From: Myxococcus stipitatus
GTDB taxonomy: Bacteria; Myxococcota; Myxococcia; Myxococcales; Myxococcaceae
DNA length: 64,000 bases
Assembly (NCBI RefSeq): GCF_021412625.1
Contig: NZ_JAKCFI010000007.1
Span: 124,001-188,000, forward strand
Reading direction: 5' to 3'
The position numbers and the translations under genes were made by a program. Position 1 is the stretch's first letter. Each line of letters opens with the position of its first letter. Below the pieces are notes generated by a model that was given only the letters and a program-made list of their open reading frames with translations, had not been told where the DNA came from and ran no database searches. Of this stretch, positions 27,973 to 36,552 are shown one piece after another.

Positions 27973-28950
27973 TCAGAGCGACAGCACGACCTTCCCGAAC
28001 GTCAGGTTCGACTCGAGGCGCCGGTGCGCTTCGGCCACCTCCTCCAGGGGGAACACGGAGTCGATGACGGGACGCAGCCGTCCCGAGGCCAGCTCGGGCA
28101 GCCAGCGCTCGCGGAAGCGGCGGGTGACGGCTTCCTTCATGGGCAACGACAGCGGACGCAGCGCCATGCCCTTGAGCTGGAGCCGCCGGAGGATGACCTG
28201 CTTCAGGTCCAGGTCGCCCCACATGCCGTTCATCACGCCCACGAGCAGCAGCGTGCCTCCGTCCCGCAGGGAGGCGAGGTTGCGGGCCATGGCCGCGCCC
28301 CCGACGAAGTCCTCCACCACGTCGACCCCCTCCCCCCGCGTCCAGCCGGCGACGGCCGCGCTGAAGTCCTCGCCGCGCAGCACCCCCGCCTCCGCGCCGA
28401 GCGCCACGCAGCGCTCGCGCTTCTCCTCCGTCCCCACCGAGACGAAGGCGCGCGCGCCAACCGCCCTCGCCAGCTGGATGCAGGCGGTGCCGATGCCGCT
28501 GCCCCCCGCGTGCACGAAGACGCTCTGCCCCTGTCGCAGGCCGCCCACCTCGAGCAGCGACTCGTGCGCGGTGCAGTACGCCTCGGGCGTGGCGGCGGCC
28601 TCGACGAAGGACCAGGCGTCCGGGACGCGGACCGCCATCCCCTCCTCCATCAAGCACGCCTCCGCGTAGCCGCCTCCATCGACGAGCCCGAAGACGCGCT
28701 CGCCCTCGCGGAAGGCCCGCACCCCTTCGCCCACCGCCTCCACGACCCCGGCCACCTCCACGCCGAGCAGCGGGCTGGTGGCGTTCGCGGGGGCCTGGTA
28801 GCCGCCCGCGCGCTGCACGGTGTCCATGCGGTTGAGCGCGGAGGCATGGACCCGCACGCGCAGCTGCCGGGGGCCTGGCACCGGGCGCGGGAGCTGCTGG
28901 AGGCGCATCACCTCCGGCCCTCCGGGGCGCTCCACCACCACCGCTCGCAT
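27973..28950 (-). CDS. Quinone-oxidoreductase-like NADPH dehydrogenase (MDR superfamily)
   Basis: A 325-residue zinc-independent medium-chain reductase of the PIG3/QOR branch: MRAVVVERPGGPEVMRL start, HASALNRMDTVQRAG, PLLGVEVAGVVEAVGEGV, EAYCTAHESL and the nucleotide-binding VFVHAGGSGIGTACIQLARAVGARA (about residues 140-165). The catalytic and structural zinc ligands of alcohol dehydrogenases are absent. Last gene of the five-gene NRPS operon, starting 4 bp after the MaoC stop. It could reduce an enoyl or quinone-like intermediate; this is inference. Confidence 0.85.
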   Translation of the reverse strand: MRAVVVERPGGPEVMRLQQLPRPVPGPRQLRVRVHASALNRMDTVQRAGGYQAPANATSPLLGVEVAGVVEAVGEGVRAFREGERVFGLVDGGGYAEACLMEEGMAVRVPDAWSFVEAAATPEAYCTAHESLLEVGGLRQGQSVFVHAGGSGIGTACIQLARAVGARAFVSVGTEEKRERCVALGAEAGVLRGEDFSAAVAGWTRGEGVDVVEDFVGGAAMARNLASLRDGGTLLLVGVMNGMWGDLDLKQVILRRLQLKGMALRPLSLPMKEAVTRRFRERWLPELASGRLRPVIDSVFPLEEVAEAHRRLESNLTFGKVVLSL

Positions 28951-28954
28951 CCCT

Positions 28955-34500: not shown

Positions 34501-36552
34501 GCCCACCTTGAGCACGCCCAGCACGGCGACGACCATGTCCACCGACCGCCGCAGACACAGCGCCACGCGGTCCCCCACCCGGACTCCGCGCGACAACAGG
34601 TACCAGGCGAGCTGGTTGGCGCGCCGCTCCAGCGCGCCGTAGGTGACGACCAAGTCCCCCGACACGAGCGCCACCGCGTCCGGCTGCCGCCGCGCCCGCG
34701 CCTCGAAGAGCGCATGGAGGCCCGCCTCGCGAGGGTATGGGACATCGGTCGCGTTCCAGTCGCGCAGCACCTGGCGCCGCTCGGCCTCCGACAGCAACGA
34801 CAGCTCGGACAGGCGCAGCCGTGGCTGGTAGACGGCCGCCTCCAGCAGGCCGTGGAGGTGGCTCACCAGTCGCCGCGCCGTCTCGGCGGTGAACAGGTCC
34901 GTGCGGTACTCGAGCTGCCCCGACAGGCCGCGCGCGTGCTCGAACAACGACAGGGTGAAGTCGAACTTGGCCGAGCCGCTGTCCACCGCCACGGTCGAGA
35001 ACGACAGGCCCGGGGTGGCCAGCTTCCCCATGGGGGTGTTGAGCAGCACCAGGGCCACCTGGAAGAACGGCGTCTGTCCCGGCCGGCGCTCCGGCCGGAG
35101 CGCCTCCACCAGCCGCTCGAAGGGCACCTCCTGGTGGGAGAAGGCCCCCAGTGCCGTCTCCCGCGCCCGCGCCAGCAGGTCGATGAAGCTCGGGTCCCCG
35201 TCCAGCTTCGTGCGCAAGACGAGCGTGTTCACGAAGAAGCCGATCAACCCCTCCGTCTGGACCTGCTGCCGCCCCGCCACCGGCACGCCCACGGCGATGT
35301 CGTCCTGGCCGCAGTAGCGGGACAGGAGCGCCTGGAAGCCGGCCAGCAGCCCCATGAAGAGCGTGGCCCCCTGCTCCCGACACAGCTTCTGCAGCGGCAG
35401 GACGAGCGCCGTCGGCAGCTCCACGTCGAGCACCGCGCCGGGGCACGCGGAGTCCGTCAGCCGCGGCCCGTCCGTCGGCAGCTCCAGCGTGGGTGGCAGG
35501 CCGTCCAGCCGCTGCCTCCACCACGCCAGCTCGCGCTCCAACGCCTCGCCCCGCAGCCGCGTCCGCTGCCACTCCGCGTGGTCCGCGTACTGGTACACCA
35601 GCTCGGGCAACGGGGAGGGGCGTCCCGCGCTGAAGGCCTCGTAGAGCGCCACCACCTCGCGCACGAGCACGCCCAGCGACCATGCGTCGGACACGATGTG
35701 GTGCATCACCATCACCAGCAGGTGCTCCGACGCGCCCAGCCGCAGCAGGCGCGTGCGCAAGAGCGGCCCCTTCGTCAGGTCGAAGGGCCTGCGCGCCTCG
35801 TCCCGGGCGATGCGCAGCGCCCGCGCCTCGCGCTCCGGCGCCGCGAACGCCCCCAGGTCCTCCACCTCGAGGACCGGCTCCAGGCTCCCCGGCGGCGCGA
35901 TGACCTGTAGCGGCACGCCCTCGCGCGCGTGGAACGTCGTGCGCAGGGCCTGATGACGCCGCACCAGCGCCTGGAAGGCCCGCTCCAGCGCCGGCACGTC
36001 CAGCGCGCCCTCCAACCGCTGCGCCACCGGCAGGTTGTAGAGCGGACTGCCCGGCAGGTACTGGTCCATGAACCACAGGCGCCGTTGCGCGAAGGACAGC
36101 TCCGCCACCCGCTCACAGGCGGGGAACGGTTCGTCCGGCACCACCCCGCGCGCCGGCGGTGGCTCGGCGGGAAGCACCTCCACCTCCGGCCCCCGCGCCG
36201 TGAGCAGGTCGATCCGCCGCGCCAGGCCCGCCACCGTGGGCACGTCGAACAGCTCCTGCAGCGACAGCTCCGCCCGCAGCACGGACTGGATGCGCGAGAC
36301 GACCTGCGTGGCCAGCAGCGAATGTCCACCCAGGTCGAAGAAGCTGTCGAACACCCCCACGTGGGGGAGCTCGAGCACCTCGCTCCAGATTCGTGCAATG
36401 GCGCGCTCGGTCTCCGTGCGGGGTTCCATCGCATGCGTGGCGCTGCGCTCTTCGAGGCGGTCGTGGGAGCGTGGCTGGGTCATGGGGAGGGGGCCTGGGA
36501 GGGGACCAGGTAAACCTGTCTTACCGAAAAAACCCGTCCAATTGAACGCCAT
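31594..36552 (-). CDS. Nonribosomal peptide synthetase, T-C-A-T-C, valine-type A domain
   Basis: A 1652-residue synthetase. Order: carrier T1 (Ser78 in FFDLGGHSLLATQ), condensation C1 (about 148-580; HHIVSDAW at 284), adenylation A (about 612-1105; YTSGSTGRPKG at 760, NGYGPTEGTT at 894), carrier T2 (Ser1153 in LGGHSLLATK), condensation C2 (about 1212-1640; HHILSDGW at 1342). Residues lining the A pocket, placed on GrsA positions, read D-A-F-W-L-G-G-T-F-K, a valine-type code. T1 has no A domain and must be loaded in trans; no thioesterase or reductase is present, so the terminal C domain or the next gene's PLP enzyme must finish the product. Start uncertain: ATG 36552, ATG 36483 (MTQPRSHDRL) or ATG about 36429. 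Heads a five-gene operon. Confidence 0.93.
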   Translation of the reverse strand: MAFNWTGFFGKTGLPGPLPGPLPMTQPRSHDRLEERSATHAMEPRTETERAIARIWSEVLELPHVGVFDSFFDLGGHSLLATQVVSRIQSVLRAELSLQELFDVPTVAGLARRIDLLTARGPEVEVLPAEPPPARGVVPDEPFPACERVAELSFAQRRLWFMDQYLPGSPLYNLPVAQRLEGALDVPALERAFQALVRRHQALRTTFHAREGVPLQVIAPPGSLEPVLEVEDLGAFAAPEREARALRIARDEARRPFDLTKGPLLRTRLLRLGASEHLLVMVMHHIVSDAWSLGVLVREVVALYEAFSAGRPSPLPELVYQYADHAEWQRTRLRGEALERELAWWRQRLDGLPPTLELPTDGPRLTDSACPGAVLDVELPTALVLPLQKLCREQGATLFMGLLAGFQALLSRYCGQDDIAVGVPVAGRQQVQTEGLIGFFVNTLVLRTKLDGDPSFIDLLARARETALGAFSHQEVPFERLVEALRPERRPGQTPFFQVALVLLNTPMGKLATPGLSFSTVAVDSGSAKFDFTLSLFEHARGLSGQLEYRTDLFTAETARRLVSHLHGLLEAAVYQPRLRLSELSLLSEAERRQVLRDWNATDVPYPREAGLHALFEARARRQPDAVALVSGDLVVTYGALERRANQLAWYLLSRGVRVGDRVALCLRRSVDMVVAVLGVLKVGAAYVPLDVAAPCERLAYLLEDTATTLVLAHEGSDAQLPASGPPVILLDQEAEAIRRTPEVAPQVAVSGLHLAYVMYTSGSTGRPKGVCVPHRAVSRLVMGTRFARFGPDEVFLQLAPLSFDASTFELWGCLLHGARLVVAPAHALSLEELGALLDAHGVTTLWLTSALFEQMVAAQPEPLARVRQVLAGGDVLHPDRVREHVRRAGRLVNGYGPTEGTTFSCCEVFTHEDGVGTSVPIGGPIANTRVYLLDARLRPVPIGVPGELFIAGDGLAWGYLRQPALTAESFVPDPFSGARGARMYRSGDLARWMPDGRLQFLGRRDSQVKVRGYRIEPGEVEVQLARHAAVREVAVVARDDMPVGKALVAYVVPSPEVSTRPAALRSFLRERLPEYMVPSAYVVLPALPLTPNGKLDRAALPRPDLSRESSLATADLSTRTPLEERLCALVAEVLELPRVEPHDDFFVLGGHSLLATKLMSRVRGVLGVELPLRVLFEGATVAELARRIEAAPRGLPSSMPPLVRLPPGATAPLSYSQERLWRMFQANPTSTAYSQPIAHRLKGPLDAEAFVAAIQALMDRHDALRTTFVEEEGRPVQKVAASLRVPLPIEDLRGAVDVEAFVSRRIAYHSREPFDLTRGPLVRGELLRVADDEHLLILAKHHILSDGWSEGVISREVSALYSALSQGRTPALRPLEIQYPDYAAWQRAWLTGPELESRMRYWRESLADAPMTVSLPTDKPRPATRTFNGTWIPVALGRERSAALNDFCHRERVTPFMALLALFGAMVCRRAGQEELVIGSPIANRAFPELEALIGLFVNTVALRVDLRGNPSLRELLGRVRDVTLGAYAHQEVPIDKVVDAVCPRRPVDRAPLFQVMFVLQNAPLGPLEMPGLTQTRLPADRGASIYDLTLSLQETAEGFEGLLEFSTDLFEPATSARMLAAFLALIDQGLAEPDLKLGPGSDLPDAGKRG

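What the first reader, a model, noticed from the sequence alone, without database searches (positions are those of the whole stretch)
27973..36552. Five-gene NRPS/alpha-oxoamine-synthase operon with no recognised product
The genes sit 3-6 bp apart or overlap: T-C-A-T-C NRPS, AOS-like PLP enzyme, CitE/HpcH lyase, MaoC hydratase, QOR-like reductase. The A pocket reads as valine, both C domains keep HHxxxDx, and there is no TE or R domain. AOS enzymes can release carrier-bound acyl chains as alpha-amino ketones, so an amino-ketone (or pyrazine after dimerisation) is a testable product. The lyase/hydratase pair suggests a built-in malyl or methylmalyl-type thioester precursor. I do not recognise this gene set.
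Basis: partly seen in the sequence, partly recalled or inferred. Interest (0 to 1): 0.85.

Follow-up and report, generated by a model that had tools for sequence, protein, structure and literature searches.

The report
NRPS-linked ketomethylene pseudopeptide gene cluster
A Myxococcus operon pairs a peptide-assembly enzyme with four enzymes resembling those that make ketomemicin, a peptide mimic with one amide bond replaced by carbon, so it probably makes a new, uncharacterised protease-inhibitor-like peptide.

Summary
Four of the five enzyme types are already known together: aldolase/lyase, PLP acyltransferase (AOS), dehydratase and reductase are those of the ketomemicin clusters (37, 51, 60 and 33% identity to a reported ketomemicin-analogue cluster). 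Like the ketomemicin lyases, the window lyase lacks an Asp kept in reference lyases. Best model: the four enzymes make a ketomethylene pseudodipeptide from an alpha-keto acid, a CoA unit and an amino acid, and the NRPS caps it. The NRPS has no TE; its last domain is a C domain in an exclusive clade of 14 terminal C domains that travel with such cassettes, so it probably releases peptidyl-valine onto the pseudodipeptide amine. It is not a ktm cluster proper: ATP-grasp and amidinotransferase are absent and the reductase is of another lineage. Substrates, product and the release reaction are inferred, and the loader of the first carrier domain is unknown. New variant of a known kind.

The parts
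31594..36552 (-). NRPS gene, T-C-A(Val)-T-C, no TE; likely true start 36483
36199..36432 (-). N-terminal carrier domain T1 (GGHSLLA), no A domain in cis; loader unknown
   Evidence: the best match in the genome to the stand-alone A protein of a sister cluster is only 31% over part of its length
34753..36111 (-). internal condensation domain C1 (HHIVSDA)
   Evidence: internal C clade
33238..34722 (-). adenylation domain, code DAFWLGGTFK (valine by recalled code)
   Evidence: same code in the last A domain of 8 of 9 genomes with a readable last A, window included
32968..33192 (-). carrier domain T2 (GGHSLLA)
31633..32943 (-). terminal condensation domain C2 (HHILSDG), proposed release and capture domain
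30373..31587 (-). alpha-oxoamine synthase (KtmB type), proposed to join an amino acid to an acyl-CoA
29479..30369 (-). HpcH/HpaI aldolase/lyase (KtmA type); Gly262 where five reference lyases have Asp
28955..29482 (-). MaoC dehydratase (KtmC type)
27973..28974 (-). QOR/MDR-type reductase (proposed KtmF role, different lineage)

Best explanation
The operon makes an NRPS-capped ketomethylene pseudopeptide. Steps 1-3 (inferred from homology to KtmA, KtmC and from the role of KtmF): the lyase adds an acetyl- or malonyl-CoA-derived two-carbon unit to the keto group of an alpha-keto acid, giving a 2-alkyl(aryl)malyl-CoA; the MaoC enzyme dehydrates it; the QOR enzyme reduces it to a 2-alkyl(aryl)succinyl-CoA. 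Step 4 (inferred): the AOS condenses this thioester with a free amino acid, losing CO2, to give a free 5-amino-4-oxo-2-alkyl acid, a dipeptide mimic with CO-CH2 in place of the amide. Step 5 (domain order and lineage shown, reaction inferred): the NRPS builds X-Val on its carriers, X being loaded on T1 in trans, and the terminal C domain releases it by condensing X-Val with the pseudodipeptide amine, so no TE is needed. Predicted product: X-Val-AA-psi[CO-CH2]-R.
For: Same four enzyme types as ktmA, ktmB, ktmC and ktmF (PMC11943689). Identity to the ktm-analogue cluster of Streptomyces sp. I05A-00742 (L126; cluster reported in PMC7317104; ATP-grasp-type domains confirmed) is 37, 51, 60 and 33%. 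Lyases from AOS loci including ktmA and the window split from five RipC/CitE-type lyases with 99* support. At window residue 262, all 52 readable lyase rows from loci with an AOS have Gly (47) or Ala (5); five reference lyases have Asp. The lyase is the only HpcH_HpaI match in the genome. AOS fold confirmed. AOS-lyase-MaoC order and strand kept in 15 of 15 examined genomes. The adjacent NRPS ends in a C domain in 13 of 13 genomes where its end was visible. 14 terminal C domains form one exclusive clade (100*), including one from a ktm-clade sister cassette at another locus, and 12 internal C domains form another. In 8 chosen genomes, hits of this C domain outside the window are five at 54-57% and then 49% or less. 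Cassettes L027 and L070 have no NRPS beside them.
Against: The reductase is not an orthologue of KtmF. The window AOS, lyase and MaoC are not nested in the ktm clade; the ktm proteins group with a second myxobacterial cassette. Loss of the Asp could mean altered activity rather than the ktm reaction. T1 has no known loader. L070 is weak as a stand-alone case: only about 5.3 kb upstream is on its contig, and its genome (G074) holds a terminal-C-type NRPS on another contig; L027 (G063) holds none. G075 has an AOS at 47% to P0002 but no terminal C of this lineage. Outside the window's lineage the rule fails: in Lentzea (L091) the nearby NRPS ends after a T with about 240 more residues, in Dyella (L112, L128) the last C-like domain lacks HHxxxD and is followed by an A-like fragment, and the Psychrobium C domains do not join the clade. 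Terminal C domains and cassette may share history without a shared reaction. No product, substrate or expression data. The ktm reaction details are recalled, not read: the 2017 paper is not held.
Confidence: 0.65

Rival explanations
1. One reading: the AOS acts on the chain bound to the last carrier of the NRPS and releases it by decarboxylative condensation with an amino acid as an alpha-amino ketone (or pyrazine after dimerisation); lyase and hydratase supply an unusual starter.
For: AOS gene directly follows the NRPS (6 bp) and no TE or R domain is present.
Against: The NRPS ends in a C domain with intact HHxxxD in the genomes of this lineage, and that C is a separate lineage. The cassette occurs with no adjacent NRPS in L027 and L070, although G074 (L070) holds such an NRPS elsewhere. 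In the ktm clusters the homologous AOS works without any NRPS (PMC11943689).
Confidence: 0.12
2. The cassette product, or the alkylsuccinyl group itself, enters at the start: it is loaded on T1, and the terminal C domain uses some other amine or nucleophile.
For: T1 has no A domain in cis, so something must load it in trans; L024 and L026 start with a C domain.
Against: Terminal C, not T1, co-travels with the cassette: T1 is absent in L024 and L026. In a sister cluster a stand-alone AMP-binding gene lies directly before the T-C-A NRPS.
Confidence: 0.14
3. A catabolic itaconate or branched acyl-CoA module (RipBC-like) that happens to sit beside an NRPS and an AOS.
For: Closest NCBIfam models of lyase and MaoC are RipC and RipB.
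Against: Both score below the curated cut-offs (267 against 375; 249 against 340); the Asp kept in reference lyases is Gly; the lyase tree excludes RipC; AOS-lyase-MaoC order kept in 15 of 15 genomes.
Confidence: 0.05

Closest known systems
Ketomemicin clusters (ktmA-F) of Actinomycetota
   Same: Aldolase, PLP C-acyltransferase, dehydratase and reductase; lyase with the same Asp loss in the two ktm-like clusters read (L095, L126). Ketomemicin C-418 resembles Val-Leu-Phe with a ketomethylene (PMC11943689), and the window NRPS also predicts Val next to the pseudodipeptide.
   Different: No ATP-grasp ligase or amidinotransferase; an NRPS with a terminal C domain instead; reductase of another lineage; AOS, lyase and MaoC in a separate clade.
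Arphamenines of Chromobacterium violaceum
   Same: Ketomethylene pseudopeptides from a Gram-negative bacterium, aminopeptidase B inhibitors (PMC11943689).
   Different: Free pseudodipeptides (recalled); no gene cluster was compared here.
Alb29 (albogrisin pathway AOS, PDB 8xha, 8xhd, 8i7u)
   Same: Closest solved structure, 42% identity, TM 0.93; uses L-glutamate with acyl-CoAs (PMC11906848, passages).
   Different: Outside the window clade in the AOS tree; its gene neighbourhood was not examined.
RipB/RipC itaconate degradation enzymes
   Same: Same enzyme superfamilies; best NCBIfam matches.
   Different: Below curated cut-offs; Asp lost; separate lyase clade.
DynZ (dynaplanin)
   Same: KtmB-like PLP C-acetyltransferase in pseudopeptide synthesis (PMC9239090, passages).
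   Different: The paper describes dynZ next to a GNAT gene and says the linkage differs from carbonylmethylene.

Membership tests
alpha-oxoamine synthases | AOS fold and sequence family | tested here: met
   PRK07505 515 bits over cut-off 342; the best Foldseek hits are AOS enzymes; Lys254 invariant in 24 of 24 aligned members
ketomemicin (ktm) cluster | KtmA-type aldolase | tested here: met
   37% identity; on the ktmA side of a 99* branch from five RipC/CitE-type lyases; Gly at residue 262 as in ktmA
ketomemicin (ktm) cluster | KtmB-type PLP C-acyltransferase | tested here: met
   51% identity, but a separate clade from KtmB within the family
ketomemicin (ktm) cluster | KtmC-type dehydratase | tested here: met
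   60% identity; separate sub-clade, and the MaoC tree does not set RipB apart from the AOS-associated rows
ketomemicin (ktm) cluster | KtmF orthologous reductase | tested here: not met
   33% identity, against 40% for a paralogue of the same genome; different QOR lineage
ketomemicin (ktm) cluster | KtmD ATP-grasp ligase and KtmE amidinotransferase | tested here: not met
   No homologue of the L126 proteins in window 20001-48000; the rest of the genome was not searched for them
ketomemicin (ktm) cluster | product with a ketomethylene bond | not testable with these tools
   needs chemistry
RipABC itaconate degradation | RipC and RipB equivalog scores | tested here: not met
   267.1 against cut-off 375 and 248.6 against 340
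NRPS | C, A and T domains with catalytic motifs | tested here: met
NRPS released by a terminal C domain | intact C domain after the last T, no TE or R | tested here: met
   the release reaction itself is not testable here

The most novel reading that the evidence does not exclude
This is an NRPS-integrated ketomethylene pseudopeptide pathway: a dedicated lineage of terminal C domains captures a ketomethylene pseudodipeptide as the chain-releasing amine. It recurs in myxobacteria with at least two diverged cassettes, and yields an undescribed class of peptide-mimic protease inhibitors.
Probability: 0.5. Interest if true: 0.75.

Novelty: new variant of a known kind. Interest (0 to 1): 0.6.

Why it matters
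[quoted passage not shown] An NRPS-coupled version would extend the class to myxobacteria, give a modular route to longer ketomethylene peptides (protease-inhibitor scaffolds), and define a condensation-domain lineage with an unusual amine acceptor that could be reused in engineering. It also turns an unrecognised operon into one with a concrete in vitro test.

Tried and rejected
Considered and set aside: the pyrazine/amino-ketone offloading model, because of the terminal C domains and the cassettes without an adjacent NRPS; a RipBC itaconate module, because of scores, lyase tree and lost Asp; a link to the adjacent myxochelin cluster (window 38596-49148), which is seen beside the operon in L021 and L023 but not within the other stretches, so it looks like location and not function; asparaginase and aspartate 4-decarboxylase on the left, which L022 keeps both and L021 only as a weaker partial match to the decarboxylase, not judged part of the cluster.

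Led nowhere: predicting the amino acid used by the AOS from aligned residues (Arg87 is shared with glutamate-using Alb29 and is Thr in the second cassette and in L126; read by eye, too weak to use). Finding the loader of T1: best hit in the genome 31% over part of the length. Finding NRPS-type ketomethylene products in papers: the listings show none, but only open-licence papers are held, several listings were capped (12 of 100, 15 of 40, 15 of 78), and most hits were judged from title and start of abstract alone. The ketomemicin mechanism paper is not held, so its substrates (phenylpyruvate, malonyl-CoA, arginine) are recalled.

Rows dropped before counts: 11 of 49 QOR hits (5 loci of genomes fetched twice, 6 short fragments), 6 of 60 lyase rows (5 repeats, truncated L053), 6 of 103 AOS rows (repeats), 6 of 58 MaoC rows (5 repeats, short L053), repeats of genomes fetched twice (one repeated P. 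fallax NRPS was left in) and C domains shorter than about 380 residues. In one search, 17 rows bore the label terminal; 14 form the clade, two are from Psychrobium, and one (L034) is a C domain cut by the locus edge and so mislabelled. The AOS tree used LG+G4 without the mixture model; all trees are quick ones with SH-aLRT only and long-branch warnings. Lyase residue 262: of 60 rows 49 Gly, 5 Ala, 5 Asp, 1 unreadable; 2 of the Gly rows are Streptomyces plasmid lyases without AOS, 5 genomes are present twice, and 2 of the Asp rows (L047, L142) are plasmid lyases without AOS that I grouped with three solved structures as references.

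Full report
Observation. The five genes lie on the minus strand, NRPS 36552-31594, AOS 31587-30373, lyase 30369-29479, MaoC 29482-28955, QOR 28974-27973, with spacings of 6, 3, -4 and -20 bp. Pfam domains are as claimed and no TE or R domain is found. The NRPS is T-C-A-T-C; both C domains keep HHxxxD and the A code reads DAFWLGGTFK (valine by recalled code). The conserved N-terminus in M. dinghuensis points to a start at 36483, not 36552.

The PLP enzyme. It scores 515 bits against NCBIfam PRK07505 (cut-off 342). 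An AlphaFold model from 24 aligned sequences (pLDDT 91.5) matches AOS Alb29 best (TM 0.93, 42% identity), followed by ThAOS, Kbl, BioF-type enzymes and ALAS.

What the set is. [quoted passage not shown] passages). A scan of the genome-contig collection with an AOS alignment found 514 relatives, of which the best 80 were kept. One, L126, is Streptomyces sp. I05A-00742, whose genome paper mentions a ketomemicin-analogue cluster (PMC7317104, passages); its order is lyase, AOS, MaoC, a PreAtp-grasp/PGM1_C protein, a 387-aa protein without a Pfam match, QOR. That L126 is the cluster meant in that paper is inferred from organism, gene types and order. The window proteins are 37% (lyase), 51% (AOS), 60% (MaoC) and 33% (QOR) identical to it. 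Of the 80 loci, 35 have lyase and MaoC beside the AOS on the same strand within 8 kb, 15 of them also a QOR, and 41 have none of the three.

The lyase. In a tree, lyases from AOS loci, ktmA, the window and two Streptomyces plasmid lyases lie on one side of a 99* branch and five RipC/CitE-type lyases on the other. An Asp present in these five is replaced in all 52 readable lyase rows from loci with an AOS (47 Gly, 5 Ala; five genomes counted twice) and is Gly in the two plasmid lyases; one row is truncated. That this Asp is catalytic in citramalyl- and malyl-CoA lyases is recalled. Its loss would fit a decarboxylative aldol addition from malonyl-CoA, which needs no base; this is inference. The lyase is the only HpcH_HpaI match in the genome.

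Where the window differs from ktm. The AOS tree puts KtmB with Lentzea, Dyella and a second myxobacterial cassette (L034-L038, L120) at 97*, while the window belongs to a separate 17-row clade (100*). The lyase and MaoC trees also keep the window apart from ktm, with weaker support in places, and the MaoC tree does not set RipB apart. The QOR enzymes of both myxobacterial cassettes and Dyella fall in one 27-row group (98*) away from KtmF, so the reductase was probably recruited differently. These are quick trees with SH-aLRT only and several long branches. ATP-grasp and amidinotransferase homologues are absent from window 20001-48000. I therefore do not file it as a ktm cluster, only as a pathway that probably works like one up to the pseudodipeptide.

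Conservation. Of 96 family genomes searched, 23 hold an AOS at 66% or more. AOS-lyase-MaoC order and strand hold in 15 of 15, an adjacent QOR in 13 of 15 (missing in L029 and L030), and an adjacent NRPS in 13 of 15 (missing in L027 and L070). In L031 the NRPS is convergent on the other strand. For L070 only about 5.3 kb upstream is on the contig.

The NRPS. In all 13 the last domain called is C; a T is called directly before it in 12, while L062 shows A-C. In the 11 with printed positions at most 16 residues follow the C hit, which leaves no room for a TE. Upstream modules vary: T-C-A-T-C in the window and M. dinghuensis, T-A-T-C in L023, C-A-T-C in L024 and L026, and longer lines in L025, L028 and L030. 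The last A domain has the code DAFWLGGTFK in 8 of 9 genomes with a readable last A, window included, G070 (L023) being the exception. In a tree of 45 C domains, 14 terminal ones form one exclusive clade (100*), including L143, which belongs to a ktm-clade cassette of G071 whose NRPS reads T-C-A-T-C over two overlapping stretches (L037, L143); 12 internal ones form another clade (100*). Three more rows labelled terminal lie outside: two from Psychrobium and one (L034) cut by the locus edge. Searching 8 chosen genomes with C2 gives, outside the window, five hits at 54-57% and then nothing above 49% in the part of the list shown. Three of the five lie about 10-11 kb from an AOS of 47-49% (G025:C10) or 46-47% (G060, G067) identity, the range of the second cassette, though only G025's AOS is in the tree; the other two (G025:C3, G074) were not placed relative to a cassette. 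G063 and G077 have none, and neither does G075 although it has an AOS at 47%. Outside this lineage NRPSs near such cassettes end differently: Lentzea after a T with about 240 further residues, Dyella in a C-like domain without HHxxxD followed by an A-like fragment, Psychrobium in a C domain of another lineage. Within the myxobacteria, the last C domain stays with the cassette while T1 and the upstream modules come and go; this is the main reason to think that C2 condenses the peptidyl chain with the cassette product. Terminal C domains that release chains onto free amines are known in other systems (recalled, for example rhabdopeptides).

Mechanism. Shown: gene set, domain order, family membership, predicted fold of the AOS, lineage of the terminal C. 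Inferred: alpha-keto acid plus CoA unit to alkylmalyl-CoA (lyase), dehydration (MaoC), reduction (QOR), condensation with an amino acid (AOS), capture by C2. In ketomemicin C-418 the residue joined to the pseudodipeptide is valine, the same residue that the window A domain predicts at that position; this is suggestive only. Unknown: the alpha-keto acid, the amino acid, X on T1 and its loader.

Novelty. [quoted passage not shown] its homologue survey reports Actinomycetota, and the word stems 'myxo' and 'proteobacter' do not occur in it. The listings of eight searches of open papers show no NRPS-coupled case, most hits being judged from title and start of abstract. On this evidence the set is a new variant of a known kind.

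Noticed in passing
window 38596-49148: Myxochelin siderophore cluster: DHB genes, DHB-AMP ligase, MxcG over the NCBIfam cut-off, class II DAHP synthase.
   Followed up: partly
L034-L038, L120, L143: A second, ktm-clade cassette in other Myxococcaceae; in L037 and L120 with a class III aminotransferase, a ketosynthase, a stand-alone AMP-binding protein and an NRPS (T-C-A-T-C in G071). The window genome has only one AOS over the PRK07505 cut-off, the window's own.
   Followed up: partly
L050 5774-18720: Pseudomonas protegens AOS-lyase-MaoC cluster with DmpG aldolase, acetaldehyde dehydrogenase, ornithine cyclodeaminase-like gene, MFS transporter and an arginyl-tRNA synthetase, which might be self-protection against an arginine mimic.
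   Followed up: no
L077, L080, L092, L106 and others: Rhizobial AOS relatives with none of lyase, MaoC or QOR nearby; role unknown.
   Followed up: no
L087, L089, L090, L094, L103, L107: Corallococcus AOS relatives without lyase or MaoC nearby.
   Followed up: no
L046, L048: Streptomyces plasmid lyase-MaoC pairs with the Gly motif, near acetaldehyde dehydrogenase and a GNAT gene but no annotated AOS.
   Followed up: no
L025, L028, L144, L145: Long assembly lines of the same family; an early A domain has a code without the usual Asp (IDWLMSVADK, IDWVMSIADK), perhaps not an amino acid activator.
   Followed up: no
G025:C3:827169-828479, G074:C119:30494-31774: Two further terminal-C-type NRPS hits (57%) in frames of about 1650 aa whose neighbourhoods were not read.
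   Followed up: no
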